Positions 5,169 to 42,546 of a stretch of DNA of 64,000 nucleotides are shown one piece after another; the first letter of the stretch is position 1; each line of letters starts with the position of its first letter. The translations under genes were made by a program, and so were the position numbers. Source of the stretch: Crotophaga sulcirostris. Lineage: Eukaryota > Chordata > Aves > Cuculiformes > Crotophagidae. The stretch lies in the NCBI GenBank assembly GCA_013397455.1, contig VYZB01000144.1, positions 1,428,258 to 1,492,257 on the forward strand, written 5' to 3'. Under the pieces are notes generated by a model. The model was not told the origin of the DNA. It was given only the letters and a program-made list of their open reading frames with translations, and did no database searches.

Positions 5169-5295
5169 CCTTGCCTTGCCTTCTCTTCCCTTTGTCTTTT
5201 CTTACCTGGCTTTTCCTTTTCTTTTTTTTTTCCTTTCTTGCTTTGTCTTGTCTTTTTCCTCTCCTTTTCTTTTCTTATATATTTTTTTTTATGAT
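5169..5295 (+). repeat. Degenerate polypyrimidine right flank of the microsatellite
   Basis: The sequence right of the gap is almost purely C and T (ccttgccttgccttctcttccc and so on) and looks like the decayed far end of the TTTCC array. It contains the first visible comb slot (5,223-5,231) and the second (5,282-5,290). The long plus-strand open frames spanning the gap translate N bases and are not genes. Confidence 0.85.
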
Positions 5296-6409
5296 GTTTA
5301 CTAGGATTTTTTTAAAAGCCCTTTCAGGACTTCTATAAGCTTTTTTTTTGGCTGTACATCATTGTGACTGAATATTGAACTAATCACTTCAGTTAACTGT
5401 TGGCTATCACTGACAAGAGGGGAACTCAATAAACTGTGAATTAGTTCAGAGTTCTATTCAGCTCAATTTGTTGCTGTAAGTTACCTTTTGTGAGTTACAA
5501 TATCCACTTTCCAACTGAAAAGCTCTTACTAAATCACAGCAGCAGTCAATTTCAGTCATGACCCATGCAGGGCTGCCCTTTTCTTTGTGGTATTCAGCTG
5601 TCATTCAAGTCAACCCTTTTCATTAAATACACTGTACCCCAACCTATGAAGGCTAGTTCAAGATAAAACATTGCAACTGTATACTTCTATTAAATTTTTT
5701 TTTCATGCACTTTAATCCTCTTCATATTTACTCTCACTAATAAACATCCAGGGTGCTTATCCTTTTGAAAGATGAAAAAGCAGGAAATGTACTTTGTACT
5801 GGTGCATATCTGTTTTTTTTTGATACTTTGACTGTTCATTCAAAATCAACTAGGTGTGAAACACCAACTTTGATATTCCGAGACCTCACAGGTTCTTGAT
5901 TTTTTTTAGTGAGGATATTCACATTTTATTTTTTTTTTTTTCTTCTTTTGAGAAAAACAACTTTTGTTAGATTTGTATATGTATTTTTTTTTTTTTTTCA
6001 TAGTTTAAAAATATTTGGAACTGTACTGCAATTAAAAAACTGAGGAGTTTTTTTTTTTGCTTGCAGCATGACACAACTCGTTGGATTTGGCTCTATTTAA
6101 TACTTTGTTTTTTTTTAGTGTGGGATATATTTCTGTATCAAAGAATACTGCCAACCTGCACAAGTTTTTTTTTTTAATAACTTGTTTTAATTTTTTTAAA
6201 TTGTGTGAAAAATAGTCTAGGTTAGTTTTTTTTTCAACAACTGCAATTCTCTCTGATTCTCTTCATAGCTTATGTGGAAACGATCCATAAAACACATTTT
6301 CAAAATAGCACATGTATGTCATGATTCACTAACTTTCCACACTACGAACATTCCTGAACCATGTTTAGGGAATTCAGCTATTCGTGTTGCAATTTTGTGT
6401 CCTGTACTA
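5296..6409. other. Unique DNA damaged by comb slots
   Basis: No gene or transposon is recognisable. Filled T9 slots crowd the stretch 5,931-6,234, where six consecutive slots are filled. Confidence 0.55.
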
Positions 6410-6461
6410 GAATCATAGAACAATTTGAGCTGGAAAGGACCTTTAAAGTTCAGTAGAAGGG
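6410..6461 (-). mobile_element. CR1 LINE 3'-terminal stub
   Basis: The sequence aatcatagaacaatttgagc followed by tggaaaggacctttaaag is the reverse complement of the CR1 3' end, the octamer tail plus the start of the 3' UTR. Similarity fades into the filled comb slot at 6,462-6,470, so the element may continue but cannot be followed. It is a very short remnant with no coding sequence. Confidence 0.8.
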
Positions 6462-7860
6462 TTTTTTTTTGATAACCAAAGTAGCCCTTGCGGGACTGAT
6501 AAGCTATGAATCCAGGAAAGTTTTGAAAGGGACCAGAGCTCTCTTGACCACCTGAAACAGAAACACATCATTCTTCTCAGTTAAGTAAAAGAATGTTTCA
6601 CAACCAAAAATAAGATAAACATAGAATAAGCAAAAGTGTAAGTAACATAACCAAAGCAAGCTGTGATGCAAGAAATCTATAACAAGTAGTTTAGAATGGA
6701 TTTATTAATTTTTCTTCTTTATTTTGTCCTAAGATGTTAATCTGTTTCCCTGATAATTTTGTGCATCTTTCCTTTTTTTTATGCACCAGGAATGAAAATG
6801 ATAGTGTGGACAAATCATAATCATCCATGTTTTGCAGTTTTTGTTGAAGTTTACTATTATGAATTTATCCAAAACTCCCATATTACAGAAAATTGTGTGC
6901 AAGATTTTTTTTTTCCAGAGAAAATTGAAAGTGTTTTTTTTTAATTAGTATCTTGCATTTATTTTTTTTCAGTAGTTATGTTTCCATATGTATTTTTTTT
7001 TTGCAGTAAAAACCTCTGTTTATAAGGATAATACTTTCCTATTCCGAAGTCTACCGTTGAACTGCAGAATTGTGTCCTTTGTAGCACTGCGTCCTCTTGT
7101 TTGATTTTTCATCTGTAAACAAAAATACACTGTGTATAATATTCCAAAAAGAGAATATTCTCAACATCTGATAGATAAACACAAACTTGTTTTCTTTATA
7201 GTTATAAAAGCAAGCATATTCACACTGCTACATGTAGAGGAGGTTTTGCTAACGCTCTGTGGAGCTCCCAGTCTCAGATTGCCCATCACTCTGAAAAGCA
7301 TAGCTTTGTGCACTTTTAGTTAGCTGGAGAACTAGAGTCTGTGTACACTAATCATATTCCAGACCACATTATCTTTCTAGACATGAGAGTTACCTATGCA
7401 GTTGTGTTGGCAAAATTGTGAAAAAATCAATCTAGGCAAGTAAACTCTCAAATTACAGTTCTGTTTTTTTTTTTGTAGCCCCTCTTCTATATGGCACTTT
7501 TGTCCATAATTTTTTTGTGTCACACTCATGTTCAGAAACTCATTGCAGAAGTGGCTAAAAGATCTTGCAGTACTTAAAGACCTTGCTTGGCAGTAGTCCC
7601 TAGTGCACAGTCACCAACTTGCAAAAGTTTTCACGCAGTCAGCATGCAGCCTTTGGGGTAGTTCATGAGCTAGCAAATAAATAACTCTAGTATAATTCAA
7701 AACAAAATCTACTGTGTGCTTTATACCAAGGTTGTTAACAGGACAACACAAATCAGTGTAAATAGCTTATTTACCAATACCTAAAAATGGGAAGTGGTGG
7801 GCTAGATCTCCACCAACCTTCACCTAGTGCACCTATTCATCATGGAGCTGTTCCAAAGCA

Positions 7861-7889
7861 GAAAATGCCTCCATAGGTGAGGCATTTTC
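7861..7889. repeat. Perfect 11-bp inverted repeat, 7-nt loop
   Basis: The arm gaaaatgcctc (7,861-7,871) is followed by the loop cataggt and the exact reverse complement gaggcattttc (7,879-7,889). It could form a cruciform or an RNA hairpin. No comb slot falls in it, so the bases are trustworthy. No function is assigned. Confidence 0.85.
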
Positions 7890-10022
7890 ATCTAATACAA
7901 TTTCATTCTCCCCAGAAAAATTAGTTCCACAGAAAAAAACTCCTGGAACATGCTACAAGACCTCTTACTCAGTACAGATTACCAGCTCTCTCTTTTGAGC
8001 ACTTAGATCTAAAGAGTCAGTGATAAAGCACCCAGTAAAGGAAAACACAGACCCTTTTTTTTTGATGACCAAAGGAAAAAAGACTCAAGGCAAAGCAGTG
8101 AGTGCAGCTACAGACTAGTTCACACTTTTGATAGTGCTGTGAATAGTGCTGCAGGCCAGTAAAGACGTCTGGAAACTCACTGAGCTTGACTTGCCCTCTC
8201 TGACACTACCATCCTTAGCACCAAGGGATTTAAAAAGCAGTGACGCTGGCAGATTGCAACCTCATTGATTTTGTACATAGAGAGCATTACTGAAAATCTG
8301 GCTCTATGACGTATTCTTATTCAGCAAAATCCAATTTCTTGTCTCAGAAGCCCAGGCAGAGTATTACTAAGAAAATGGTATGTATAATATAGGGGAACAA
8401 ACACATTCCTTTGCTCAGTAACATTAGTTGTTGTCTTTTTCATAGACTTCTCTTTCATAATGTTGATTGACCTAGTACTGAGACAGCTTAGGCACTTGTA
8501 TGCTTATCTAAAGGTACTAGCATTTCTGTTTCACAGCGTGTTCCTTTCTATCAATTCTACTAATTGGTTGCTCAGGACTTTACAGCACTATCTTAAGCCC
8601 TGTAAAGAATTATTTACTACTTTTCTTTTCTTACTTTTTTTTTTTTTTTTTTTGTCTAGCTTCAGAGATGGCAGCAAAGGTTTGACTGCTAGCCCAAAAT
8701 TACTCCCCTCACAATGTAGTAAGAACCTGATCCTTTCTGGAAAGATCATTAATCGCAATCACATATGACTTCATGAATATATAAATCATGTTTTCTTTTC
8801 AAAAGCAATACAAGCAAACCATCCTGGTATGTGAAAAGTCTAGAAATATAAAGTTACAAGTGTGTTTTTCTGAATAAATACCTGGAGTCCACCCCAAAAC
8901 CTCAACTCTGTGCACTCTAACCGTCCCACTGTGTTCACCCTCTGAATTGTTCTTGATGTTGGAATTGCAGAGGTTCTTGAAAGTTAAGAGAACTCATTTC
9001 AAACTCCTGGCCCAAGCATTCTGGAGAATTTCAAAACAATAAAAATTAACAAAACCTCAAAAATTGAAATAGATCTGTCTTTTCTGCTTACATGCACCTG
9101 GAAAGCTTTCTATGGGAGAAGTACAAAGTTTTACAGGGAAATAACTCACTCTGGCAAAAATTTTAAGTAGATTATTTTTTTTTTAGTTGAAATTAGAGAT
9201 GGGGTAAAGTAGGATTTAATAAAAGAATATTATGTTTTTTTTTTGGACTGAGGGGAGATTCCTTCAGTCTCCTTGTTCAGTCATATTTTTTGAATGTGTA
9301 GAAGACTGATGAGAGCAAAGGGCAGTTCTTTTGTTTGAAATGCATGTATGATTTTTTTTTTATAAAGATGCTTAACAAATGGAAAGATTAGTATTTCTGC
9401 ACATTTTGAAGTTTTTTTTTATGACAGTACGCTAATTCTTTTTATATAATCCAAGTTCACACAAAGCGTGTTTTTTTTTTGAGAAATGCTTAAACATTTT
9501 TACATGTTCAAGACTTTTCAATGGATCATCAAAACCAGAAAATGTTCACAAGTACGTGACCCTCTGGAATTATATTATTACGTTTTTCATATAAATAAAT
9601 AATCCACATTTTTATCATCATAAGTTTTTCTTTCACAGTGCAGTAAATTATTATTTTTTTTTGTCTAGATAATGCAGGAAATTGAGCGTGTTGTATAGTT
9701 GCTGCTAGAAGAATTTGAGGATCTTACCTCTTTAGTTTTAGACCACATATTCCTTCATTGGGTGCATGCTCTCAAGAAAATTAATCTCAAAATAATCTTA
9801 TCAATATAAAATCTACAGGAGTTATAATGGCCTGTACTAAGCTTGTTTCCACTGTATGTTCAAACTGTAACAACTGATTAAATAGTAATTTTTTCTCTGT
9901 GTCTTCCACAGTAAGAACATTTCTTTGGCTAAAACAAGTTTACATGTGATAATTATATGGAAATCCCGAAAGGCAGTCTGAGATCCTCCTTTGGTTTCCA
10001 CTTTAGGCTGGGTCTCCCAGTA

Positions 10023-10051
10023 TTGTGATATCAATATATTTGATATCACAA
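10023..10051. repeat. Perfect 12-bp inverted repeat, 5-nt loop
   Basis: The arm ttgtgatatcaa (10,023-10,034) is followed by the loop tatat and the exact reverse complement ttgatatcacaa (10,040-10,051). Each arm contains an EcoRV-type gatatc palindrome. It does not overlap a comb slot. It could be a chance palindrome in AT-rich DNA or the core of an old hairpin-forming element. Confidence 0.87.
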
Positions 10052-12790
10052 CTGATCCCCCAAATCAAGACTCCCAATACTCCCTCTGTCTTTACACCTT
10101 AAATGGTTTTCCAATAAAGTCATATCTGTGCTTCATTTTAATGTTTTCCAGCAATGTCTTGAAAAGACTGAGACAGCTTTTTTTTTTAGATGTTGATGTT
10201 TGAAATGATTTATCTCCCTCTTAGCACCTCTTGCTAATTTTTTTTTTTTTTATGCTGTTTTCACCGTAAGTGAATCTTGGTGGGTATTTTGTTACTCTGA
10301 AGCTAGTCTTCTTGCAGATATCACTTTGTGACTGCTAAAAAAAAGATACTTTTTAGTACGGCTTTTGTGACCCATACAGTTTAAGGTTGTTCCCCTGTTC
10401 ATGGAATTTATTTTTACACTAAGGAATGTCTAGTGATAGGGATGCAGATTTCTTTTTGACAAGTTTTACTTGAATTGGACTTGGAAAAGCCTGGTTCTGA
10501 GACCTGGCTTCTTACATGATAATGTTCCTCAGATTCATGAGTAAATTTACTCTCTCAATTGCACAAACAGGAAAACTCATAAAAAGAGGTTAGCCAGTTC
10601 TCTGTAAATATGTCCCATTAAGTTCTTACACCTAATGGCACGTTGTATCGTGAGTTTTGTTAAATCTTTTAATTAAAACATGTTAACAAAGCCTAAGAAA
10701 AATAAATGAAACTACTCACAAGGAAATTAAATTGAGAAGCTAAGCTCATTTATAATTATTGTATTTCAATTAGTCTTTGCTAGGGCTGGGTGAAGGGAGA
10801 GATAAAAAGAAACTACTTTGATGTTTGAGTTTCATAAACATTTCTAGTGTCCTGTTTGTGAAGTCCATAATATTAATGATAACTGTTTACAGCATGCAAG
10901 CTTTTTCATGCCAATTACTGTACTGATGAATTCATAGTATTACGTGGAAACATGTCAAGGCTTAGCCCCTAGGTTTTGTAAAGCAGGTTTGCTGCATAGC
11001 ACTCAGAGGAAGTGAAACTACTCACACCTCTGATTCACAGATTCAATAGAATTTACAGTTACTTTTTTTTTTTTTCTGATTCTCTCTGATTATAGAATTT
11101 GGTGATTTAGGCGATTCCTATGTGCAGATCCAAATCTCTTAGTTGGATTTATTAGATAGCAAAAGTATAGCTTATTTCTCACTAATACACATTAAACTTT
11201 AGTTTCTCATTTTGCCATCTTATCATCTTCTGCTTCTAAATTAAGGAGTCATGAAATATCAGTAATCTTCTCGTGATGCACACACTTATGACCATGAACT
11301 TTTTTTTTTCTTAATGTTCTCCTACTATTGCAGAACATTTTTGCCCAAGCATTAAAATGTAACCATTCTAAAATATTTTTTTTTTTAAATTCAGTCTTAA
11401 TCTTTGACTTTTTTGATTTTTTTTTTTGTTAAAATTAACTAAGACTGGAAGATCTAATAATGCTAGCCAGCTCATTCTCCACTATCTTCTGTTTGCAACA
11501 GTTATGCTTTCCTAAATTACAATAATTTTAAAAATAATTAGCAATAAATCACCATACAAAGGAAGTAGTGCCAAATATTTTCAAATTACATTTATTTTTC
11601 CATCCAACGTTTCTGTCAGTAAAGGTCAAATAAGTTACACCAACTGTTGCTATTTTTATTTTTTCTTTTAATTTCTTAAAGCTTCTAAAGTAGCGCTTGT
11701 AACAAGCATTATTCTTTCTTAAAACATAGGAAAATATCCATTAATTTTCATAGGGATGACCCTAGATAAGCAAAGTCAACGATGCACATATGTACTTACT
11801 GGGAACAGATTAAGAGGCTGATAGATACTACTGCACATTTTTCATCATACTATTACAATCATTAAAAAACATTCCTTTGTTACAAAAAAAACCTTTAATT
11901 TTATCATCAAGTCATTGCTTTCTTTCCCTTGTGAGGGAAGGGCATTGATTTTTTTTTTCAAGTTGTTTGGGTGAATTAGTTCTAATGGATTTCTGTATAT
12001 TTGTTTTGTTAGCTCCCATCACCAAAAGGAAATGAGCTCATCACTTAGTCTAGAAACCTAAAAGCGACTTTCAGGCATGCTCTATGTAGGCAAGTGATTA
12101 TACGACACATCTGATCACAATAATCTAGGAAGAAAACAATGACATAAAAGTAGATTTTAAAGCCGAGGTCATGGTTATTTTTTTACTTTAAAGAGCCACA
12201 ACACCAGATCTAAGTCAAAGTGTGAATTTACCACTTACCTGCTTCTCCCTATTGCTCTCCATTCCAGAGGAGTGGAATGGAATCCCAGCATAATTTTTCA
12301 GAAGTTGTTAGACAGATTTAACACTTGCTGAAAATACTATTTGACTTTTTGCCAGAGGTTTCTTGACCTCCATAGCAACCATGACACTATCCCAGGCTGC
12401 TTCTCCCTCTAGGTGTACAAAATAATTTGTTATATTCAGATACACTCTGTGTCACAGTGAGTCAAGCATTCACACCAAACCAACATCACTTAGGGTCTCT
12501 TGTCTGTCAGTGTGTTTTGATGTGTTAAAGATAAAACATAGCTCTAGAAGACTATTGAAAAGTTAAGAGCATTTCTGTGAAATGACTGAAAAGTCACTTT
12601 GGTGAAATGACTGAAAACTATAATTATGGTTGACGTACTGTAAATACAACATATTCTTTTTTTTTTTTCTCATGCTACTTTCATGGGTCAAGAGAAAGTT
12701 ATACAAATGTAATGCAGAAGTTTTTGGGTTGCGGGTTGGTTTGTTTTGTTTTAATATCTCTGTTCCAAAATCCCTTTTTTTTTCCACAAA

Positions 12791-13291
12791 GTAGAACTAT
12801 CAGGTTGGGAGAGATCTCCAGAGGTCTCCATTTTTTTTTTTTGTTCAAAGCAGGGTCAGCTAGGAAATCAGACCAGTTTGCCCAGGCTTTTATCTAGTCT
12901 CCTAAACCTTCAAGAAGGGAGACTGCACAGTCTCTCAGTGTAACCTTAGTCAAGCTCTTCTGGTGTTTGAATATCCTCTGTTTGAAAATATTTTTACTTA
13001 AGTTGGAGCCCCCCGCTTCAGTCTGTGACAATTGTAGTTTGTTCTCCCTCCATGCAATGCAGTCATAAGCCTGGGCCCTCTTCTTAATAACCTCATTTTG
13101 GGCATTGAAAAACCGCTATTAGGTCACCTTTTTTTTTACCTCTCCAGGTTGAACAAGACCTGTTCCCTCAGTCCTTCTACACAGTCAAGTGTTTCAGAGC
13201 ACCAGGCATCTTGAGGGACCTCTCCTGAACTTACTCCAGTTTATCAGTAACTTTCCTATATAGGGAGGACACATACAGTCTACCAGGTACT
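12791..13291 (-). mobile_element. CR1 LINE, old 3' copy
   Basis: Read on the minus strand this is the 3' end of an older CR1 subfamily. Diagnostic plus-strand stretches are atcaggttgggagagatctc, gttcaaagcagggtcagcta, gggagactgcacagtctctc, ctctccaggttgaacaagac and cctgaacttactccagttta. It covers the 3' UTR and the end of ORF2, with many substitutions and small deletions and no usable frame. Two comb slots fall inside it (12,834-12,842 and 13,129-13,137). At the first, 12 T stand exactly where related copies have 12 bases between ggtctcca and the gctcaaagcagg motif. Confidence 0.9.
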
Positions 13292-14559
13292 ACGCAAAAG
13301 GAAAATTTTTTTTTCCTTGAATAGCTCCTGGTGAGCGAAGCAACATTGACTTGGAGGTTTCGTGATCACAACTATGCTGATAGAGTTCTTCCATAGCATA
13401 GACCTGGTTTGATCAGTGCTCCACAAATACGTGACACAGATGAAGATAACCAACAGTATTATTTTTGTCAATTTTAGGGGGCAGTTTCAGGTATTGGGAA
13501 TAGCTTTTCAGTCCAAAATAAAAACACTCACAATGTTTAAGGAACCCAGCTACCTGTGAGCCTGCCCCTCTGTCCAGTTGCTGGTGGAACTCAGGGCTTT
13601 GGGACACAAAAGTATAATGGGCACACTTTGAGAACTATGTTTGGGTAGTTTATGAATTATTGTCTTTAGCTAGCTATTAAAACAGTAAATTTCCAGTGAC
13701 ATTTTAAATCCATTTAACTTTTCATTGAAACAGGTTATGACCAATTATAGTAGTGGTTTCTGCATCTCAACTGATAAGCAGAAATGTTTTAAACTTACCC
13801 AAACTGGTCAGTAATGCCACCAGAATGCTCACTCCAGTTACATGTTGTAGCCCCTGTTTTGCAGAAGAACTGAAATCACCACATCCAGAGAGGAAAATTG
13901 GTGTCAGGGAATAAAGCACAATCTGGTGGTATTTTTCATGCATGTCTAGAAACTATGTCAGAATTTCTGAATCATGATATTTATCATTCTAGTATTTATT
14001 TTGCATTAACATACAATATCTTTATTTAAGTGTCTGTTTTGTAATCAGTTGTGGGAATCAGTGCCACAATGACAGAAAACTGACAAATGAATGTGGGATA
14101 GTAATTACATATTAATCGACGGCTAATAAATTTTTTTTTTTACAAGAATGATAACAAGCATGCCCATTCTTTAGGCATATGAAGAACATTTTTCACTTTA
14201 TTTTTTTTTTTTAAGTTTTATAAAATAGAACAATAACTATAACTGATGCTGTATCATACCTTACTTCTTTGCAGTGCAAAGTATGTTAAATAATTTCAAA
14301 ACGTCCTGTTGTTCTACAGGATTCACTACGTCTTTATTCCCACATTACTTATTTCTTCAGTAAGTGGGACGAGAGCTGTTCTCTCAATTGTTTAAATACC
14401 ATTGAAAGCACTGCCTCAGCACACAACAGTTTCTGTTACAGATACACTTATTACAAAAGAATGGGCGAGGAAAGCTTTGCTCAGACCACATGCAGTTGAT
14501 GTGGCATCACTGTCCACTGGAGAAAAGAATTACGGAGACATGCTAGTTTAACATACCAA
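13292..14559. other. Unique DNA, no gene seen
   Basis: No gene or repeat was recognised. Comb slots are filled at 13,306-13,314 and about 14,132. The T run at 14,201-14,212 is off the lattice and probably natural. Confidence 0.5.
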
Positions 14560-15020
14560 CCATCAAGCTAGGCCCAGTTTAAATTCCCCCTCCCCCAGCT
14601 CACTCTCCTTGTCTCTCTCTCTCCCCCTTTGTTAGATTCACACACTCTGCTTTTCCAATTGCTTTAGCCCGAAGCAGTTGACATTTACCCCAGCTAGATA
14701 ATCGAGGAATAACATTTGCGTTACAGTTTAACATGACCTCTGCCTCTACAGCTCTTTTTAGATTACCTTCCCCACCAAAAAATGGTTGCTGACACCCTAG
14801 TGAGGCAGGAGGTGGGAAAAAAAGAAAAGAGAAGCTTATTATTGCAGTGGCACAGTCAATGTCATGAGAAGCTGCTCTGCCCTTTTCAGTTGTGGGTGAG
14901 CAACTATTAAGGAAAAGGTATTAAAAGGAGAAACAACTGTGATGCGAGGGACACACAGGTTAAGCTCAAAGCAAAGGTTAATGGATTGACTGTTACCTGT
15001 GTATGAGGCTTAACGTTGGT
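14560..15020. other. Candidate conserved non-coding block
   Basis: This stretch has more balanced, complex composition than its neighbours. It has no transposon similarity and no open frame worth the name. It starts with a C/T-rich tract (about 14,586-14,630, including tctctctctctc) followed by dense unique sequence and no filled comb slot. Such islands in bird gene deserts are often conserved regulatory elements. That is inference from texture only, since no alignment could be run. Confidence 0.3.
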
Positions 15021-17635
15021 CTATACACAAGAGAATTGCTTCTAGGTTGTATTTTTTTCATGAAACTAAATTAAATTTTTTTTTTATTCCAGTATAAGAC
15101 AGTGAGATGCTGCTACTGTTGTTGTTTTAATATATTTTTTTTTATTTTCAATTCAAAATGTTTGCTGTTTATTTTGAGCATAGTGTCCTATAATTTTTTT
15201 TTCCTTGAGAAAGGAAGAGCAGAAAATGACACATTTGGCTGAAGATACTCACTGAAATCTTAAATGGAAGAATTTTAACGTTGGTCAAGGAAACTGGACA
15301 AAGTTTAGAGTAGAAGTTTAATAGTTATATCACATTTTAAAAGCAGAAATTTTTTTAAAAATAATTCACCTCAAATGAAAAAAGAAGAGTAAAATTTTCT
15401 GAAGAGCAGAAGAGAAAAATTATTCAGTATTTTTTTTTGATCTGTTTTCCATGTTTAAAATCCCTTTATGTATTATTTATGAAATAGATTTTTTTTTTCA
15501 GTGCCTGTAAGTTTCTTAGTAGAGTTTCAAGGAAGCAGATCAGCATATTTTTTTTTTATAAAGAGTTAACATAAATTGGAAAAGAAGTTCCTCATTGGTA
15601 AATTACTTAGTCAAGCTAATGCCTATACAGTAAGAGCAGATTAGCTCTACTAATTCCAGGAGAAATTTTTTTTTGGCTGATATATTCAGTGTGGGGTTTT
15701 TTCAGTTATGCCAACATGAATGTGTTTTTTTTTTTGGTATTTACAATGTATGCATTATTGTAACCAATACAGGTAAAATATTATTTTTTTTTAATATAGT
15801 ATTGCCTTCTCCCTTAGAGTGAATTTAAGTAAAATCTTCTTGTCCATAGAACAGTGACAGAAGACAAATGCATTTAAAATGAAAGGAAAACAACTAATAT
15901 CAGGTTTAGGCCATCTGTGGATTTTGAACTTTGTAGAGGCTGTTTCATCACGATCAATTTCATTATCTAGACTTTTTCTTAAATGCCATCTTCTCCTTGA
16001 TTAAATCATGTTTTCAGGGAAAAACTAAGCACATAACATCATCATGAAAGCTAGAAGTAGAGAAAGAGGCAAATCGGCTTTTTTTTTAGCAACTGTCACC
16101 TAAAACTTGTATCTTTTTCTTTCTTTCTTGCAATTTTTGGAGGGGGGATCACTCAAAGAAATGTACAGTAGGATTTCGAATCGTTAAGTACTGGATTACC
16201 AAGAGTAATCAACAATATGTTAGTATATTGGAATATCACCTTTCAAAAACCTGACTTTTTTTTTATGGTTCATTAACACCTTCCTTAAAATATAAATTGT
16301 CATTCTGCTTAATGTTTTTTTTTAATTATTCTCTGCCATTAATTTTGGGGTATTTTGCCCAATTTTATTTTAATTTTTTTTTATGACTTCTATAATTTCT
16401 CATGGGATACTATTCTGAAGCTTAATACATTCTTTTTTTTTGAATTTCCTTCCCAATATTTATTCTTATACTTTGTCTATTATTTCAATTTTTTTTTTTT
16501 CACAAAGTCTGGGTTATAGCTTCACACATTTATACCAGCTGCAGCCAGTATTTTTTTTTTATGAGCAACTGTTCCTGATAGACTTTAATCCTTATTTATA
16601 CCCAAAACGAGTCTTAATTATCAATTCCTCAGACCACTTTTTAATATTTATAAACTTATTTATTTCTTTTTTTTTTTCTTATCAAGCACAGAAAACTACC
16701 ATATATTCTCAGATAATACTCTGAGTGTTTTTTTTTACTGAACTCTTCTTTTTTTAATTCAAGTCCATGGTGTTTGGCCCAGACATTTTTTTTTTGATGA
16801 GACTCAAATAGTGCAATATACAAATCTGTATAACTGTTTCCCTACTTTTTTTTTACAACATGATATAGTTCATAAAAAATGAATGCTTCAGTGTTGACAT
16901 TATTTTTTTTTTTGTTTTGGAACTCATTCGTACAATCTTTGACTCTTCCTATGACCTTTAGGATTTTTTTTTAGGGATTCTTTCCAAAGGGATCTTTTAA
17001 TCACAGAGCAGCTCAGTTTTGGTTTTTTTTTACACCAAATGAATTTTTGTAGATAACACAGGATTTCTGAAAATGCGTACTTTTTTTTTTCACGCTACCT
17101 GTCTGACAATGCTGATGTTTGCACCAGGTATGAAGGGGAATTTTTTTTTACAAGTGAAATGCATGGTTGACTCGTCATTCCCAACACTGTCTCCACTCAT
17201 TTTTTTTTATTCTTGCCTTCCAACAAAGAAACAGAGCGTGAGGAAAAGGGGAGACTGCTTTTTTTTTATGACGAGGTACAAACAGTATCTTTCTTTCACT
17301 GTGATATGAACAGATGGACTAATGACCAGGGCTCCATTTTGAAGGGTACTACCAGATGACTTTGCATTCACCTCTTTTCTAAAGGGAGATATCAACCAGA
17401 GTAATGTTAAAAGTTAAGCAGGGAAAGAGGAATAAACATCTTAGCTGATGCACCAGAAGAGCTCCTGCCTGAACAGAGTTTAACAAAACTTGGCTTTTTT
17501 TTTCTGCTAGGAATCCTGCTACTGCTGAAGACTGTTACACGGACTTCTCTGCAGCCCTGCTGCTCTAAGATGCAAAGGAATGGTTGGAATCAAGCAACAA
17601 TGATCAGTGAACTTTTTTTTTAAAGCTAAAGGACA
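15021..17635. other. AT-rich DNA with the densest part of the comb
   Basis: No gene is recognisable. Between 16,256 and 17,267, 17 of 18 consecutive 59-base slots are filled with T9; only 16,610-16,618 keeps a natural sequence. More than 15 percent of the bases in that kilobase are therefore unreliable. The plus-strand open frames at 16,440-16,724 and 17,073-17,309 are products of the T blocks. Confidence 0.6.
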
Positions 17636-19859: not shown

Positions 19860-20160
19860 CAATTTTTGTACGCACCCTTCACATTGTAAGGGGGGGACCA
19901 TGAATCAAAGGACACTGCCTGTCTGGGCCTGATAAATGCATCGTTTACCAGCTGAGGAGTTATTTAGGACTGGCTATTAATTTAAATCACATTTATCTTC
20001 CCTGAATGGGGGGAGGTTGCTGTGATAGGACTGCGAATGACCAATAGTGCAGCTAAGTGCACATTATTTATTACTACCGCCTGCAAAGCACTGCACAATA
20101 TGTTAAAAAAAACCCAGTGCCAATTACCATGGTTAATCTAGTCAGGGCAGTAACAAATTT
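19860..20160. other. Candidate conserved non-coding block
   Basis: This is dense, complex, non-repetitive sequence with no filled comb slot and no transposon similarity. It includes motifs such as cctgataaatgcatcgttta, agctgaggagttatttagga and cgaatgaccaatagtgcagc. Its texture, with mixed AT-rich homeodomain-like sites between GC-richer words, resembles vertebrate developmental enhancers. That is a judgement by eye only, and no conservation data were available. Confidence 0.35.
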
Positions 20161-30100: not shown

Positions 30101-33100
30101 TAAGAAAAATCACATAGTTCAGGGATTGGATAGTTTTAGCTGCACCTGGTGATATGCTTATCTTGCTGTCTTCTGCAGATTTTTTTTTGGTTTCTTCTTG
30201 TCTTCAAGTTTTTTTCCTAATTATGAAGAAGCATCTGACTTCCCCAGTAACGTATTTAAGTGTTTCATTGGGTTGCAAACTGCCAAAGTGTGCTAAGTAA
30301 CTGAGAAGTGCATCTAGGTATGTTTGTAATGTGAATAGTTAGACACATTCCTATCCTTTTTTTTTTTGACAAAATTAAAGGGAAAAAAAAAGTCCTCTCT
30401 CTAACAGGCCTAGTGGAAAGTTTGAACATGTTTGAATAAAATATTCACTATGGCTCCTTTATTTGACAAAAATTCCCAGACCATGACTTCCTTTCGTAGT
30501 TCAAATGTCAAGCATCCCTTCCACTGTGGTCAGGGTGGCATGCAGGAACAGAAGGAGACCCTAAACAGAAGTCTTTAATGATGACAAGCCTGGTTAACTC
30601 AATGACCCACAACATCTTTTGTCTCCCTTTCTCCCCATGTTGGCTCCTGCTGATTTAGATGGGGGAAGCCAACTAGCAGAGCAGTTGCTCATGCATAGTC
30701 TAGGGAAAACGCTTTCTTCACCCTTGTGCATAGAGTGCAAAAGGGCCTTCAATTTCCTCTGTACTGTTTTTCGGTTTTTGTCTTTTTCTCTGATTGACTA
30801 GCTTTATATTGATTGAAAAGTCATTTCCTTTGCCCGCTCTTCTGAAAAACAAAATAAATGTTTTCTGTGACCCTAACTCTTAGATTTTTCTTTCCACAGA
30901 GCTAAAGAAAAAGTTTGCTGTCAATTATATTGAAGGAAAAATTATGTTTTTTTTTTGTAGCACTTTTTTTCTCCTTATGTGTCAAAAGGGAGCAAATGAT
31001 GCATTTTTTTTTTTAAAGCTGAAATAAAGATTAGGTGTAAAGTGCTATTGATCCCTTTACTAAGAGAAGTTAAGACAGATTCCACTCCGCTGTCAGGTTA
31101 CATTTTCAGTAAGTTACCCAGATTTTTTTTTTGAAACTTCTACAAAGGAGTCTTTAAAGTGTTGTTGAAAGTATCAAATAAGATTAGACCAGACAGCAAA
31201 AAACAACCATTAAGAAATATCAGTGGTGCAGCTGAAGTACTGTCAGGCTGCACTGTCCCAGTGTTTAATGTATCCCAATGCTTGAATGCTAAGGATGCCC
31301 ATGTGAACTTCTAGAACTTTAAAAATATCACTTACTGCGTTCTTTGTGTGTATGCTCTACAGATATATATATTATACATACATATGTATCTCCATGTTGT
31401 GAATCCACAAAGTCTTAGGCACATGATGTAGCTTTCATTGGATGGAGCAGAAGAAAGCTCCTGTTTTCAATTCCTTAACTTGCTGTTCATCCAAAGAATA
31501 GTCTGGATATGTTGGTGATTATAAGCTATACCAGTTCTAATGAGAGAACAAAATATTACTGTAAGTCAGTACAGTAGATTTTCCTCCAGTTACTCGGTCT
31601 TCTTGTTCCTGACAAACCCTTCTGCCATTCCTTTGCTCCAACCGGGAAGCTGGACAGCAGCTGAAAAATTACATGACTTCTTAACAGAGAGTATATGGTC
31701 AAATGTCATCCTTTTCTGTACTGTTTTGATGTACCAAAGTTTATGAGAAATCAGCTACTCAAGGCATTTTCATTACTTTCTACATCAGTTAATGACCAAG
31801 TTTAGAAACTTTATGTACAAAATGCAGACAAGATAAACTAGGAAAATATTGATGGTTAGTTGCACAAAATGGAGATACCAGAGCCAGATAAATTGAAAGA
31901 AGGATTAGGAAGCTGCTGGTTAAATTCTATAAATTAAAAAAAAAATTCTACATAGCTGAAGCAATGCAATGAATTTCCTGATTCTCAGTAGGGCATCTTT
32001 AGAAAATATCCAGAGATTAATGGAAGGAGGAGGGGTGGGAGGGGAAGAAAGAAAAAACAAAGCCCCTCAAAACCCACCACATAAAACTAATAAAAGCAAA
32101 TGTCCTATGAAAGCAGATGATGAACCTTCATTGAATTTTAATATATCTGGAAACATGCCAGTGATGGTAGACTCCAGTGCTCAAGAAACACTAACAGTGC
32201 ACATTTTTTGTAGTACAATGGGATAAAACGCTTGAAATCCTGAAACACTCATGATAGAAGTATTAGTTCAACAAAAGTTCTTTACTTTCAAGTAAAGAGT
32301 CAGGATCAAAAATCCACACTCACTGTATTTTAAGCTCTAACTTTGGGCTGGTTCTAGTTAAATTTTTTTTTATAAATGCCTTTTCCCAACTGGAAAATAC
32401 TAGGTCAGCTCATGCAATGCACTTCCCAGTCGAATTTTAGTGAAATCTACTTCATGTCCTTTAAGACTGTTCTATGATGCAAACTGGAGCATTGTAGGGT
32501 AGAATGATTAAGAGGTCTACTTATTATGAATTAATAAATCATGAAAAAATCAATTCAACTAGATCATATCTGCCATGATCTATCAGTTGGCGATTGCTTA
32601 CAGTACTCACTTGTACTCTATAATCATTGAAGCAAACAGAGTAAGAGAGTAGACTGGAGCTTGGTTTTCATTTTGGGATGAGTTGGCAGCTTGCCTACTT
32701 TACTTGTAGAACTCAGACTATTTTGTCTGGCTGCTGATAATCCTTCCAAGCATCCAACAACAAATTCCTGCACTGTGTTTTCCCATCTGATATTTTCCTT
32801 CTTCTGAATTGATTGAGACCATGTGACACTAACCTTTAGGTACAGGCTATGAAGTGAGACCAGTCAGGTAGACATCTTGGCAAAACAACGTGTTTTTTTT
32901 TTATTCAGGAGTTGAAAAAAGAAAAAAATCTGTGACTTTGATAGAAGTCTTCTTTTTTTTTTCAGATCTAACAGTGTTCTGCTGGATGTTGCTTTCATTC
33001 ATCTTCAAAACTATCTGCATTAACAGCAATTGTTCCATTTACATATTACTTTTAAAAAATATTTTCCTCATACCACCATCACTGACAGCAGCTCCAACTG

Positions 33101-36100
33101 AGACCACAGAGAGAAACTTGTGATTCCATTTTTTTTTTCACACTGAAAGGAACCCATAGATAGGCTAGTGAAAGACAGCAGAGATAAATCTGGGACAGCA
33201 TGATGGGAGATTGTGAAGTTGGTTGAATTCCAGAAAGCACTGAAGCTGCTATAGAGGAGCAAGAGTGGAGGAAGGAGCTATCCACTATACAAGCAGACTT
33301 CAGACAGCACAACAATGCCACCTGATTTAGATAGCCCATCACATCCAGCAACTGCAGTATTTTGTTTTTTTTTTACAAAATAGCAGCAAAAGGCTTCCAT
33401 GTCTCTAAGGTAGAATACAAACTGAAAAAATAATTCTAGCATAATACAAGTAATTTATTAGAAAGGTTTTAACCAGTTCAAGCAGTGAAGAATATTCACA
33501 GACTCAAGAACAAACAAATACTATTTAAAAGATCTCTTCCTTTCTTCTAAACTGCTTATCCCTTTTTATTCAAGCTATTCTTGAATTCTTATTTCTCTGT
33601 TTTTTTTTTTGACACAAATGTCAAGGCAGATCATGTGGAACATGATCACCATAGGTTGCATACTGTATTTTAAAGTTATTCCTCCACTAATAATTAACAT
33701 ACTTCATATTATTATAAGTTATGTGTAAGGAAGAGCATCTGTTTGATGAATTTATTCTTGGTTTGTATGTTGCACCTCCTTAAAAAAGAAACAACGAGGT
33801 CAGATGGCATTTGGTGGCAGAGGTTGATCCTGTTTATCCTTGGAGCAACTTACACGCCCAGAAGAGGAAATGACTGAGTCATGAGAAACTTAGAGTGTGC
33901 AACACAAGAAAAGACTGATAAACCTCTGAGAGAAAAAAAGAACAAACACATACCCAAGAACGACAGAAAAAGAGGCTTCCAAGAGGCAGAAGAAATTATG
34001 CAGCTCAGAAAGGCACTGAATTAAGTGAAAGCAGACCTGGAAGCAAGAGCCTGCCCTGCAAGGACACAGGGGGCAGAGTAAGATTTCTTTGCAAACATTT
34101 TGCTTTCTGTTGGGTTTTCTCCGTTTTTAAAATGTCCCTGTTGTCTTCCTTCTTCATAGAAAAGATTGCTTTTGGACTTCAAAAGGCTTTTTGGTCTTTT
34201 TAGGGTAAGAATCCTTTCATTCCACTGAAAACTCTGTGAGACAGCAACCTGTTCTTACAGTGTCTTCAGACAATCAGTGGTGTTAGTGGACTACTACTAT
34301 TTCTCTGCAGTGAGTCGACTGAACATAAGGGGAAAGATATTCTGCTCTCCGCTGAAGGAAGACAAATAATGGTAGAAAAAGTTACAAGGAAAATCAAAAG
34401 TTAAGAGAAATCAACTTTCTGAAAAATTTTTTTTTTATTGATAAAAAATAAAAATACTGAAAGCATTCTCTCTGAGACATTTCACATTTTTTTTTCAAGG
34501 GAAAGGGAGCGTAAGAAGAAATGGAGATTGCAAGAGAGTGTAAAAGGAAACCGACTGTCCATAGCAGACCTCTATTTTTAGATTTAAAAGAACACTGTCT
34601 TTACCAGAGTTTTCTCTGAAAAACAGAAGAACTATTATCCACCTTTTTAAAACTGGAAAAGAGTAAGACTATAAACAAAGATGGAACTGAACTGTTTGCA
34701 GCTTTTCCCATATTAAGACATACTTCTTCAGAGAAATGTGTCAGAGGATTCACTCTCTGTAACACCTAGCATTTGTTTGTTCACACTGACCTAATTTTCA
34801 GGAAGCTTTAGCTTTTCATGTGTATAAGCAATTTATCATGAATACATACACTGGAGTTTGTCATGCATGTACAGAACATAGTTATCAAGGCAAAAAAGTT
34901 GTTCATGGAAAAGATGTATCATTAAACCATTAAAGCACATAGTTCCCTATAAATCAGATCCAAACTACTTATAATAATCTGTGCTAATCCTTTTATGTGT
35001 AAAATAAATAAGCATGTTTTTATTCCATTTTAAACAACTAATCATTCTTTCTTTTCCATATTTACATTTTTCTCCTGCATTAAGTACATATAGTTTAGCA
35101 CATATAGACGGTGAGTCTTCAGCTGGGGAATCAAATTTTTTTTTAAAGCAGATACAATATTTTAATCATGAATTTAATGGTAACATTTTGCAAATTTTTT
35201 TTTAATGATAATTGCTCATCAAAAAAAATAAAATGGAACTTGGAAAAATGTTGTTTTTTTTTAATAAAGTATTTGACCTGCAAACAAAAATATTTAAATT
35301 TGTAACCAACACATACAAACAAATCACTCACCAAATTTCCTAATATTGTGGTGTTAAGTGAGCTAATTATCCATATTAAATATTATTAAAACAGCATTTT
35401 TTTTCCTTTGAAGTTAACACATTAGTATTAATATAACTATCAGACATGAGAAATATAAAAAACACAAACAACAAAGGCATATGCACAGTATCAAGTACTT
35501 GTTCTTTTAGATGTTTGGACTTTGTGCTGAAGACTGTCAGAACATATCAGAATGCTGCCGTTTACAACCAGACACTAGAAATACAGAAGACAAAGGGAGA
35601 TCTGACTTCCTACCGCAACACATTGAATGAACTTCAAATATTTAAGTTCTGGAATCAACACACAAATAAATGAAATTGTTTTCACTTCTTTAGAGCCAAA
35701 ATATCTCTCTGCTGCCTTAACTGGGTCTACACTAGTGCAAAACTGAGGAGAGACATAGGAGGTTTTTTAAGTACATTGGCATAGTACACACAAGTGAACA
35801 ATGAAACTAGCAAATTAAATTCATATCAGGAGTGAAAAGGATAGATTTTTACAATTATTCATTATAAAAATTGCAGCTGAAACCCATTCCAACATGCAAA
35901 ACAAGTAGTTAAGATAATCAAACTACAATAACTTTGCTAATGCACCAGAAGAATAAAAATGACTCAGCTGGATTTGTCTGAGAAAAAAGAGATCTACTCA
36001 GAGAAAAATAAGCATTATGATTTTTTTTTACAATTCTGTGAAGTATGTCATTAAAAGCTAACTTTAATTAATTACTTTATTTTTTTTTAGTTCTTCAAAT

Positions 36101-39100
36101 GCAAAGCACAACATAAAATTTCATATATACTATATACATTTCATGGGAAATATGAAAGGTTAACATTCTCCTGTCTCCTTATTTGGGACGAAGAGGAACA
36201 GAAAAGAAGCATGGTTTCTCAAAAATTTAACGCAGGACATTTTCTTTTCAAAATAATCAAAGAATACTTAATCTTTTTGTAGCATTACCTGATGAGTCAT
36301 GCATATAATCAGTACAGTTGTTCATCAGCCCAACTGTAGCTTTATGAAAGTTAGTAATGGTCTTCATAGTTGTTATTTCAACCAAAAGGCATATACAAGT
36401 TTTAGACATTCCATCTAGGTTTGGTATGATTTATTTTTTTTTGATATATCTCTCTTTCTCCCTTATTACAGACAGAATTATCAAACTTGACCAGAAAAAA
36501 TATTTAAATATTATCTGGCTAAACAGGTGGACTCAACCAGACTCTATGATCCGGTAGAGGGCTGTTGTCAGCACAAGACATAAAATAACTATCTATGGAA
36601 AAGATATGAGATTTTAATCAATGGGAAATAATGGTTCAAGAGGTCTGATAAACTATATTGTCTACAACCCATTTGATAACCCCTCTACTGACCTCACTTC
36701 CAAATTAGGTAAACCCAGCATATTCGTTCTTTAACTGACTACACGAAACTTAAACTCTCTTGCAGGCTAACAAAGAAAATGAGCAGAACTTGGCTGCCTT
36801 TTTCTCCTGTGAATCTTTCTCATAAGACAGCGATTTGCGACTATCTTTTTTTTTTTATTATAATGACAATTCTGCACTTCTTTACACCTTCACCTCTTCT
36901 TACAATTTTTTTTTAAAATTAGAAAAATGTAATATTTCTTTACTAAAGTTGCCCATAAGGAGGATTTTTTTTTGAAGGTTTCAGATCTAAGAAATCCATA
37001 AAAGGGAATGAAAGGGCAATGATATAATAAATTTCCAAAGACCCAAGCTTAAGTTTATAAACTGTGTTTCACTTAGAAAGAGGAAACAACCTGAGTTTTA
37101 AAAAAGAAAGGAAACAAAAAGCCCTCAAGAGTGCTAAAGTCTGTTTAGGATCTTGTAAAAGAAACTGCCCTTTGGACCTCCTCCAGTTTACCCATATTCC
37201 CAACCAAAATTGAACAGTTGCCCTTGACCACATATGCTTGTTCCTGAGGATATTACTTCTGTTTTTCAAAAGTGTTTCAGCTCCAGTATGAAGAAAAATG
37301 CTTTGTAAATAAAAATATTTTTTTTTTACATCACAGCATTTCTGATTTGAATTTTGTCACAGTGTCTTAATCTGTCATTTTTTTTTATTTTTTTCCGAGT
37401 TTTCTATTTCATTTTGTCAGAAACATTATTAAATATTTTTTTTTTCTTGAATTTCCATTGGACTATAAAGCCATCTTTCAAGTCGTCTCTTAATGACAAG
37501 ATGCAATACACTCTGCTAAAGTTAAAATAGCTTTATGTTAAATTATATCAAATGTTTGTTAAAGGTATCTTTTCTTTTAACAACTTAGTCTGCAGCATCA
37601 GTTTTTGAAATCTATATATCTCTGCTGAAGACAGCTGAGCAATACCAATTTATAACAAATATGTGTGTTCTCTGCGATTTGAGAGAGAGAAAATCTTTGC
37701 CTAGTTAAGATAATTCATTTCCACTTCAACACAACTATATTAAACTTCCTAATACTTTATTTTCATGTAAGTCTGTGATTAATTTATACATTTTTTTTTA
37801 ATAAATATAAGGGCTTTTTATACCTGTGACTTCACAATACCTCCTGTAAGAAATTAACTGGGTAAATCAGAAATAATCTTTTTTGTAACTGCTTTGCAAC
37901 TTTCACTGTTTTTTTTTTATGTTGGTAAGCACTTAAGGATAATTGTGCTGAAAATTAAGCATATAGATTTTTTTTTAAATAAATGTGCATTGAAAATTCA
38001 TTTTGTTGGATTTTTTTTACTCTTTATTTTTTTTTGCTTAGAACAGAATGTATATTCTTTAGATGCAGCACGTAGAGAATACTGTTTTTTTTTTATTCAA
38101 GGATTTGGCATAATTTAGGTTGGGGCTTCAAAACTTAAGTCTTTAAGTGGACTGATGTGAGGACTTCAGACTCCTGGAGGTGTACAATATATATATGGGG
38201 TTTAAGGCATATAATAAGCATACAAGGACTTTCAAAACAGTATATTTAGTGAAAGCATCACATATAACTTCTAAAGTGTGAAGTGTAAGCATCGGTAGGT
38301 AATACATTTGACTCCTAAGAGCCAGAGAGGTAATAAAATTATATTGTAATTTAAAATTTTATTTACATGTTTCTGTAACCTGTACATCATAGTCAAGATA
38401 CAGTTACGGCTGAGGACTAACTGCACCACTGACCTTTTATGACATTCTGCAAAGCTTACTGTCAGCACTACAAGCTGCAAAGTAATGGAAACAAAACCCA
38501 AAACAATTCCCAAACCCAGATCAGTTTCTAACCACATGTAAGTTCAGCCATGTTATGTGATAAAGTGATCCAGCAAGTATCTTGCATCTGTAATTATTTC
38601 CCATAATTCCCTACATAGTCGTTCTAATGCGAACAACTAATCCGTGAACTAGTCATATTCATATTTAAGAGAATGTTTCTTCCTTTTCACTTTAGAATTA
38701 ATACTTTGTTGATACAAACAGGCAGAGGAAATTTTATAATTTCCTGGAACTATTTTCTCACTCAAGTATATGAATACTTATTAAGACAACTTTCCCCCAT
38801 TTTCACATAAGTCACCCATTTTATACCAATGTAAGGCACAAATGCAGATTTGTGCAATCCATTTAAGTCATACTTTACCTAGTGGAATTTAACATAGTAA
38901 ATTAATAAATTTTTTTTTTTGAAATAAACATAGTTGAAATATTTTTCAGTGTGTCTACACTCAAGATTTATTTTTTTTTATACTGCAAAAACTATGTTGA
39001 CTCTAAATTCATTTCAATATAGTGTGAAATTTTTTTTTAAGATATTCAGATTTGACTTATTTTGAAAAATACTTTCTGAAACTCTGAATTTTTTTTTAAA

Positions 39101-42100
39101 ATTCCAAATAGACACAGATGAACTGCAAAATATTTGAACTGAAGTTTTTTTTTTTTAAAGTTATATCAGTTGTACAAGGTTCACTTTTTCTCCACAGAAG
39201 TCAATGTTTTTTTTTACAGAAAAGGGAGAGTCACAAGAGACACCGTGGAAAGAGTAGTCAAGCTACTCTTGTAGCATATAATAAGTAGAAAGAAAGTGAT
39301 TTGAACTTAGTTTTGATTTCTGTGTTTTTTTTTCAGGCTGTACCTGGTATGAATGGCACCTTTAAATACGCTGGTTGATTCCAGTTAGTTGGGGCTAAAC
39401 TTCAGGGGAAGGGAAAAGTTCATGGAGGACAAGGTTGATTTATTAATATACTGAATTTTTCTCAACTACACTTTGATCACTGACTTAAACTCATGTTCTT
39501 AGAGTGAAGAAACATATGCTAAAGAAGAACTTGTCACGCAGGACATCTATAATTAAAGAATATCTTCAATGAAAGCATTTCACAACACCTCCATTAAGCT
39601 TTGTCATACTGCAAAAAGAACATGAGCCACTGTGTAAAGAAAAGTTAAACAATTGTCAGCTGAAAGCAGATGAGGGTTTTATTGAATACCTGTATTACTA
39701 ATTCATGAAGAGGCACCCATGCAAAGCAGAGCAGTTACAATCATTGCTTTTAATCGTTGTGCAATTTTTATTACCAATGGAACTACTAAACAAAAAGAGG
39801 GGATAGCTTTCCTTTACTGGTAGCCATAGTTTTATTTCAGGAGAAATCAGTGACCTAGGTCACCGAGTTGTCACTGTTTCTAGTACCAGGATCACCTCCT
39901 CATGAAGAGACAGGTAGAATTACTGTCTTAAAGACTGCACAGATGGGGTCATTCAAACCCTGCTAGCTGGGGTTTTTTTTTTGTTAAAGTATGGATAACC
40001 ATTTCCAAAAGCAATACAATTATTTGACAATAAAAGAACGACAACAAGAAAAAATATAACACAGATATACAGAATTTCTAAAGGAATATATATTAACAAG
40101 TAAAGAAATGTATATTACATTAATTGTTCTGTTACCAATATCAAAAAGCATAATTGTCATTTCTATACTCTTATTGTTTAAGTTTCTGCTAAGGCCACAG
40201 TGACTGTATCTTGAGTCATAGTCCAAATATTGAGGTTATTGGAAAGTACTTTTTTGAATTTAGTGTTCAGCATAAGCTACTTCTAATCAAGAGGATAGTA
40301 TCATTTCTTCAATATTTTAAGTGAAAATTTTTTTTTAATTTTGAAAGCCTACCAAGATACTTGGTTGTTTTCACCTAATCGTAGTTTTTTTTTTTCATAA
40401 TAATAGCTGGTTTAGTTTATAAGTGTACACGACTAGAGCTCTCCAGGCATTTTAGAGCCAAAGTCTGTGTGTAAGTAATCCTTTTAGAGGTCCCCAAGTT
40501 TCAAAAATTAACAAAAATCCTCTCCATAGCAGAAGTTTAAAGAAAAAATAATATTTTTCCTCCTCTTTACTCCTTCAGTCTGTATGAAATGAGGATCATT
40601 AACTGTTCCAGATAATGAGATTTTTCTACTTTTCTCAAAGCTGTGACATGGAATACTCAAACAGTTCATATTCAAGAATTTTTTCACTGTACTAGTAGAA
40701 CATACTATTACAAATCGTGCTTCAGCTGTAAATTGGTATTTTTTTTTTTTAAAATTGTGGTATTAAGATAGTGAAAAGTAGTTGACAGATAGAAGCTGCT
40801 TTTTTTTTGAAACATATTTAATTTCCAGCATAAAATTTGTGTTTATTTTCTCTTTTTGTTTTTTTTTTCAAGGTCCACACTGTTTCAAGTACCACTGAGA
40901 CCATCATTCTCAAGGGTAGCCACAATTAAAGGAGGAATCTACCTGACCCTGGGCACTGTAGATTCCCACTTTGAGAACTTTACCTTGATTTGATTCTTTC
41001 ACTAATCTCATAAGTTTATAAAATAACTTTTAATATATTAGTCTTGAGTGCAGTCCAGAACCTTATTCTGCACAGAAGCTCTTTCATGAAAATACAGAGA
41101 CCACAGCTCTTTGCTTGGATGAACAATTGAAACAATATCCTTTGAGAGTAAGAAGGAAGAACTGAGTGTTTTGTCTCCTTTACACTTGCATCTGGAAAAC
41201 CGAGGTCAAAATATAGAGAACAGACAAAGATCAAAATATATTTATGCGTTCATTCATTTGTCTCTCTGGGTTTTTTTTTTTACAAACAGTAGGAAACACA
41301 CTTTCATTTGTTGCTGGTTTTAATATCTTCTACGTTTTTCTTATTGGCTCTTTTTTCTCTGACTACTGCTCTTTCATTTATTGGTTTTCTTTTTTTTTCT
41401 TATTTTCAAAGGGAAATTTTACATTTAATAACCTCAAGTCATGTAGTGACAGTAGAACTCATCTAGTCCCATCCATACTATTTCGTATTTCTACATTAAG
41501 CATGGCATTTTTTTTTCTTGTCTCAATTTTTTGGCACTAAATGGAAAAATCTTTTCTTTCAAAAGGTTTTTTTTTATATTTGAAATAAATATTGTGAATA
41601 ATCAACATGAAATAAAGTCACAGATTTTTTTTTTGGAAATGTATATTTCTTGCCAATTTTCAAAACAAAAAGAAGCCATTCAAGCATAAACAGAGGCAAA
41701 GAAGCAGGTAAGACATAAAATTCATCCAAAACATGAAGTTAACAAAAGCATGAAGACTTTTTCTTCACTTGTGGGGATTTTTAAAACTACACATGGGTGC
41801 TACAAGACTTAAAATTGCCCTGAATCAATACAGAAGTTTGCCAATTTGAGCTTAAGCCAAATGACTATCCAATGAAGAGTAACAGATGCACCTGATGACA
41901 TAGCATTCCAGTTCAAGGACGCAGCAGAAATATCACTTTAGTTCTCCCCAGTGACAGACAAAACTATTGATTGCACATTTACAGCTCAAATGCCTTTTTT
42001 TTCCTCCTTTCTAGAATAACAACTGAATTTGAAGTGTATGAAGAGCTTGTGGGTTTGGCTTCAATTCAAGGCCAAACAAAGGGCTTTGACTTTCACCACA

Positions 42101-42546
42101 GTCTGCAGTAGCATTTACAAACTCTGTATTTGGATTTGTGCAAACTTGTTGATTTTTTAAGCTATCAAGCATTTTCAACAACCAGAGCACAGAATAGTAC
42201 ATTTCCTTGTGTTTTTTTTTTTTTAAATTTACAGGTACTAAAATCCAGCTGAGAAAAGGTTAACTGATAGCCTGTTTTTTTTTATATTTTGTGCATTATG
42301 CACTGAGAAATTGAATCACTGATAATTGATCTATTTTTTTTTGTCGCCAAAGAGAGCCAATTAATTTGGATTACTTGAAAGCATATATTGTTTTTTTTTT
42401 TAGGAAAAAGAAAGATAAACACAGGGGGGAAAAACCCAAGCTGTTCATATCTTTTTTTTTTCCGTTTTGTTCACTGAATAAAGTATTTGTAGAACATGTA
42501 AAGATAAGACTTTTTTTTTACTTATTTATCTTAAAAATATATATAT
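24181..42546. other. Long gene-free stretch of the comb contig
   Basis: Across 18 kb I see no exon, RNA gene or convincing transposon. Open frames stay under 100 codons, and the longer ones (for example 41,244-41,540 plus) are padded by Phe and Lys codons from T blocks. The comb is dense at 24,280-25,173, 26,699-27,179 (nine consecutive slots), 38,912-39,215 (six consecutive) and 42,216-42,519 (six consecutive), and sparse at 27.6-29.3 and 25.2-26.5 kb. Short AT microsatellite patches occur near 31,360 and 38,188. A stretch at about 25,380-25,620 is GC-richer and non-repetitive but has no identifiable content. Confidence 0.5.
39850..39863. promoter_or_regulatory. 14-bp perfect palindrome of everted AGGTCA half-sites
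   Basis: The sequence gtgacctaggtcac is a perfect palindrome composed of TGACCT directly followed by AGGTCA. AGGTCA is the half-site of many nuclear receptors, here everted with no spacer. It lies in otherwise plain unique DNA with no promoter in sight and no filled comb slot. A single palindrome of this size is not strong evidence of function. Confidence 0.3.

What the first reader, a model, noticed from the sequence alone, without database searches (positions are those of the whole stretch)
5223..42519. Exact 59-base comb of T9 blocks spanning one contig
T runs of nine or more sit at positions 31-39 modulo 59 from 5,223 to 42,519, which is 632 whole periods with no phase drift. I checked starts such as 5,341, 6,108, 8,055, 13,129, 15,194, 21,271, 24,339, 30,180, 36,021, 39,030 and 42,511. 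All equal 31 modulo 59. About 157 of 633 slots are filled, always with T on this strand. No selection, repeat expansion or nucleosome phasing keeps base-exact register over 37 kb and through transposon insertions of different ages. The likely cause is a systematic overwrite during contig building or file conversion, for example unknown bases written as A on the opposite strand at a fixed block spacing. The exact mechanism is a guess.
Basis: seen in the sequence. Interest (0 to 1): 0.93.

Follow-up and report, generated by a model that had tools for sequence, protein, structure and literature searches.

The report
Periodic T overwrites in bird assembly
Nine-base blocks of T on an exact 59-base grid replace real sequence along one 37-kb piece of what is likely a bird genome assembly, and similar grids with other spacings damage at least seven other scaffolds, including an exon that matches the immune gene IRF4, so this is likely data corruption and not biology.

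Summary
The comb is real and exact. Of 633 slots at 31 modulo 59, 157 are T9, between a 469-N gap and a single N; 0 of 451 same-phase slots outside fit. It is an overwrite, not DNA biology. A CR1-like repeat loses 9 bases for 9 at two teeth. The window's own assembly holds at least seven more combs with other masks: lose/keep 10/50, 14/13, 22/39, 7/10, 8/18, 11/25 and a compound 9-1-13/37. In one, the next contig repeats 89 bases of the damaged end and differs only inside a tooth. In another, a tooth turns IRF4 residues FRIPWKHA into FFFLFFFF without a length change. Teeth behave as units. Filled fraction falls as the intact stretch lengthens: 100% at 10-18 bases, 83-89% at 25-39, 25-34% at 50 (Spearman -0.94, 8 combs). 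Best reading: short masks recycled along assembled sequence wrote T, then read-based correction restored teeth where reads could still align. The program and the order of steps are inferred.

The parts
4700..5168 (.). 469-N scaffold gap, left border of the combed contig
5169..42547 (+). combed contig, 37,379 bases: lose 9 / keep 50, period 59, 157 of 633 slots are T9
5223..5231 (+). first full tooth (T9)
42511..42519 (+). last tooth (T9)
42548..42548 (.). single N, right border of the combed contig
18838..19070 (+). CR1-like repeat copy (name recalled) crossed by two filled teeth; used to tell overwrite from insertion
18911..18919 (+). filled tooth that stands opposite nine bases (five A, four T) in the copy at 1119-1345 and nine mixed bases in the copy at 57335-57612 (-), where a 2-base gap follows just beyond the tooth
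18970..18978 (+). filled tooth that stands opposite nine mostly non-T bases in both other copies, without a gap
15076..17267 (+). densest patch of filled teeth

Best explanation
The T9 comb is a length-preserving overwrite of real sequence in what is likely a bird genome assembly, most likely made when software recycled a short mask (here lose 9, keep 50) along an already assembled contig, after which read-based correction likely restored about three quarters of the teeth. Shown: exact register, replacement without length change at the four teeth that have a comparator, eight combs with eight masks in one assembly, teeth that behave as units, and a filled fraction that falls as the intact stretch between teeth grows. 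Inferred: the recycled mask itself, which looks like the poly-T tract of some short sequence of length p because one mask is T9-x-T13; that the comb was complete at first; that reads repaired it; that this came after scaffolding.
For: Register: 157 of 162 T>=9 runs of the contig on one phase. Overwrite: CR1-like copies; the right end of the C60 comb against the next contig, 89 bases, 0 gaps, 93.3% identical, which is 6 mismatches, as many as the non-T bases of TATCTCCCTC that stand opposite one T10 tooth; IRF4 exon, 41 of 42 residues identical outside the tooth and FRIPWKHA opposite FFFLFFFF without a gap. Other masks: C60 218 of 632 slots; C81 1469 of 1469; C639 68 of 82, C652 177 of 177, C680 230 of 230, C915 139 of 167; C917 both sub-teeth in 86, neither in 11, only one in 0 of 97. 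Repair: longest kept stretch against filled fraction, Spearman -0.94 over 8 combs; no excess of partial T runs at the edges of unfilled slots, and slots one base short of full are as rare as in controls (2 against 1 in the window, 1 against 2 in C60); filled slots cluster (lag-1 autocorrelation 0.40 in the window, 0.33 in C60); the C60 comb has two phase steps of -9 and -2 modulo 60, as later indel edits would leave. After scaffolding: in C639 the phase is 16 mod 61 at 548,650-549,098 (7 of 7 A22 runs) and at 561,826-566,809 (68 of 68) with at least 1,809 N between.
Against: No reads and no second assembly were available, so repair is not seen directly. The cross-gap register in C639 is one case (chance 1 in 61), whereas the combs in the window, C60 and C81 lie between Ns and stop there, which would also fit a per-contig step before scaffolding. 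The window comb has no phase step at all. Filled slots in the window and C60 sit in T-rich, C-poor surroundings on the T strand only (window: C 0 and T 1 of 632 circular shifts as extreme; C60: 1 of 631 each; A and G not), which plain GC-dependent coverage does not predict; C639 shows no such effect and in C915 G is as depleted as C. Kept length and lost fraction are confounded in 8 combs (lost fraction also correlates, 0.81). I know of no program that recycles a mask in this way.
Confidence: 0.72

Rival explanations
1. One-step conditional overwrite: software walked in blocks of fixed size and wrote T only in blocks failing a local test such as low read support; nothing was restored later.
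For: Teeth behave as units and are clustered, and filling follows local composition. The window comb has no indel in 632 periods.
Against: Does not explain why filled fraction follows the length of the intact stretch between teeth, up to 1469 of 1469 filled, nor the phase steps in C60.
Confidence: 0.17
2. The damage is not in the public assembly but arose while the copy read here was prepared.
For: The alteration is clean and in-silico, and I could not see the deposited record.
Against: Clustering, composition dependence, phase steps and eight different masks are hard to get from a simple planted or conversion signal. Four 10-kb control stretches and 40 kb of flank show no comb of runs of 8 or more.
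Confidence: 0.08
3. Real biology: poly-T tracts phased by chromatin, a tandem array or selection.
For: Poly-T tracts are common in vertebrate DNA (recalled).
Against: No array of period 59; base-exact phase; the overlapping contig and the IRF4 chains lack the T blocks; periods from 17 to 61 in one genome.
Confidence: 0.01

Closest known systems
Assembly or consensus artefacts in public draft genomes (general class)
   Same: Wrong letters introduced in silico and bounded by assembly gaps; in C60 the neighbouring contig holds other letters at the tooth.
   Different: Exact periodic masks of T that change from region to region; the listings of five paper searches (listings and starts of abstracts only) showed no such case.
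Recycling of a short index or mask vector (a programming error; recalled, no call)
   Same: Would give a constant period equal to the mask length, any pattern of lost and kept bases (including 9-1-13), and register through N.
   Different: Not tied to any named program here; does not by itself give partial filling.
59-base tandem repeat with A9 in a Bacteroidales contig (L001)
   Same: Three A9 runs at 59-base spacing, the only match to the exact three-tooth pattern in genome contigs.
   Different: The bases between the runs repeat too, so it is an ordinary tandem repeat, not a comb in unique sequence.

Membership tests
In-silico overwrite artefact | Real sequence replaced without length change | tested here: met
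   three places, four teeth with a comparator, two of them in the window
In-silico overwrite artefact | Base-exact register independent of content | tested here: met
   C60 with two phase steps
In-silico overwrite artefact | Absent from the raw reads | not testable with these tools
   no reads held
In-silico overwrite artefact | Present elsewhere in the same assembly, not genome-wide | tested here: met
   four 10-kb controls and 40 kb of flank show no comb of runs of 8 or more
Tandem repeat / satellite | The unit between the T runs repeats | tested here: not met
   block identity 0.268 against 0.274 expected
Comb laid before scaffolding, contig by contig | Phase unrelated across scaffold gaps | tested here: inconclusive
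   C639 keeps phase 16 mod 61 across at least 1,809 N, one case; window, C60 and C81 combs stop at N

The most novel reading that the evidence does not exclude
This assembly carries an undescribed class of post-assembly corruption, a recycled short poly-T mask that punches regular holes through tens of kilobases and is then partly healed by read correction. The intact spacing decides how much heals, and annotations built on this assembly may hold false FFF/KKK stretches.
Probability: 0.5. Interest if true: 0.4.

Novelty: not a real feature. Interest (0 to 1): 0.33.

Why it matters
It is not biology, but it corrupts data that others may use: 1,413 bases of this contig (3.8%) are overwritten, about half of the 39.7-kb contig on scaffold C81 is overwritten, and an IRF4 exon reads FFFLFFFF where solved chains read FRIPWKHA. 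Gene models, variant calls and poly-T or conservation scans on these stretches would be wrong. A simple test (T-run start modulo p per contig) would find such damage in any assembly.

Tried and rejected
Insertion instead of overwrite: rejected at the four teeth with a comparator. Tandem array: rejected. A slot-content rule (T-rich slots overwritten): unfilled slots have normal mean T (2.82 against 2.83), though slots with five or more T are few (54; control mean 72, range 52-86), and teeth also replace T-poor sequence, so not a sufficient rule. A rule on one flanking base: outside the neighbouring teeth the smallest p among the offsets tested is 0.007. Machine learning on the 50-base flanks: cross-validated AUC 0.51-0.58; on +-150 composition or 3-mers 0.67-0.68; neighbour status alone 0.78. 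Anchor at the contig start: the first full tooth lies at offset 54 in the window contig and in C60 but at 22 in C81, and at other offsets in C639 and C917, so not general. Pfam on six frames of the contig: 0 families in 24 frame-stretches. Rfam on the window at gathering scores: 0. Exact three-tooth pattern in collections: viral contigs 0; genome contigs 1, an ordinary repeat. The passages that I saw of the turkey genome paper PMC2935454 (four terms) do not speak of such a comb. The species is not identified here; 'bird' rests on recalled CR1 sequence.

Full report
Observation. The comb is as described. In the contig 5,169-42,547 of the window, 157 of 633 slots starting at 31 mod 59 are T9, and 157 of the 162 T runs of nine or more lie on that phase. 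No same-phase slot outside the contig is T9 (0 of 451, 8 of them with N). The borders are a 469-N gap and a single N. The other columns of the 59-base register have ordinary composition.

Overwrite, not insertion. A CR1-like repeat copy at 18,838-19,070 carries filled teeth at 18,911 and 18,970. Aligned with copies at 1,119-1,345 and 57,335-57,612 (minus strand), each tooth stands opposite nine other bases. At the first tooth the copy at 1,119-1,345 has five A and four T, and in the second copy a 2-base gap follows just beyond the tooth. Only 2 of the 157 teeth have such a comparator in the window.

Which slots are filled. Filled slots are clustered (runs test z -10.3; lag-1 autocorrelation 0.40). 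Teeth behave as units: unfilled slots show no excess of T runs at either edge, and two slots (11,654 and 21,684) are one base short of T9, against one in a shifted control. Filled slots lie in T-rich, C-poor surroundings on this strand (T/(T+C) within +-150 bases: AUC 0.72; best of the windows scanned 0.725; fill by quintile 0.13, 0.11, 0.16, 0.32, 0.53). Circular shifts of the fill pattern reach the observed difference 0 times in 632 for C and once for T, 407 and 219 times for A and G. No single flanking base decides, and local sequence predicts only modestly.

Other combs in the same assembly. The window is scaffold C395:1,428,258-1,492,257 of an assembly of 1.058 Gb in 1,548 sequences. The pattern T9-N50-T9-N50-T9 is counted 5,633 times forward and 1,622 times reverse; long T runs count more than once, and only the first places are listed, so the number of combs is not known. 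I read seven further combs, most only in part. C60:1,369,888-1,408,469 loses 10 and keeps 50: 218 of 632 slots, with two phase steps of -9 and -2 modulo 60; about 0.7 kb around the steps was left out of the count. C81:793,613-833,286 loses 14 and keeps 13: 1,469 of 1,469. C639, with A on the + strand, loses 22 and keeps 39: 68 of 82. C652 loses 7 and keeps 10: 177 of 177. C680, with A on the + strand, loses 8 and keeps 18: 230 of 230. C915 loses 11 and keeps 25: 139 of 167. C917 loses 9, keeps 1, loses 13 and keeps 37: both sub-teeth are filled in 86 slots, neither in 11, one alone in 0 of 97. The last five were read in main stretches of 3-6 kb. Four 10-kb controls and 40 kb beside the window show no comb of runs of 8 or more.

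Direct proof inside the assembly. Just before the single N that ends the C60 comb, 89 bases are repeated by the start of the next contig without gaps at 93.3% identity, that is 6 mismatches. The tooth reads T10 in the combed contig and TATCTCCCTC in its neighbour, which accounts for all six. In C917 a tooth lies inside an exon that matches solved chains of interferon regulatory factor 4 (best E 5.4e-24). Over residues 16-65 of the query, 41 of 42 residues outside the tooth are identical to the chain, and FRIPWKHA stands opposite FFFLFFFF without a gap, only the first F agreeing.

Mechanism. Shown: the replacement, the periodic masks, the unit behaviour, and the fall of filled fraction with the intact stretch (100% at 10, 13 and 18 bases; 83%, 89% and 83% at 25, 37 and 39; 25% and 34% at 50; Spearman -0.94 over 8 combs; lost fraction also correlates, 0.81). 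Inferred: a complete comb was written first, and short reads then restored teeth where enough intact sequence was left to anchor them. This would also explain the clusters and the indel-like phase steps in C60. The masks look like recycled short vectors. T9-x-T13 resembles an interrupted poly-T tract, so the mask may mark the poly-T of a short sequence of length p; this is a guess. Order: in C639 the phase is the same on both sides of at least 1,809 N (7 of 7 and 68 of 68 runs), which points to a step after scaffolding. But this is one case with a 1-in-61 chance of coincidence, the stretch between 549,100 and 560,001 was not read, and the window, C60 and C81 combs stop at N.

Against my reading. 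The strand-specific link to T and C is not what simple coverage bias predicts. It is seen with a shift control in the window and in C60. Without such a control, T AUC is 0.70 in C915 and C917 (C 0.38 and 0.55, G 0.36 in both), and C639 shows no link (T 0.46, which counted whole periods only: 67 of 81, 138 of 166 and 86 of 96 filled). No program is named. No reads were seen.

Literature. Five searches of the held library (listings and starts of abstracts) showed no report of such a comb; one paper was looked at in passages (PMC2935454). This is not proof of absence.

Noticed in passing
scaffold C81:793,613-833,286 (L015-L018, L027): 39.7-kb contig with T14 every 27 bases, 1,469 of 1,469 slots filled: about half of the sequence is overwritten.
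   Followed up: yes
L037 (C917:199,001-205,000), 1,979-2,176: Exon matching IRF4 with FRIPWKHA overwritten to FFFLFFFF by a compound tooth; compound teeth are filled or unfilled as a unit.
   Followed up: yes
L033, L038, L039 (C639): A22 comb keeps its phase mod 61 across a scaffold gap of at least 1,809 N.
   Followed up: partly
C60:1,408,470: A single N stands between two contigs that share an 89-base overlap and were not merged, probably because of the overwritten tooth.
   Followed up: yes
window 4,560-5,220: The 469-N gap lies in a CTTTC-type microsatellite.
   Followed up: no
L001 1,392-1,588: Bacteroidales contig with a 59-base tandem repeat holding A9, an unrelated look-alike.
   Followed up: yes
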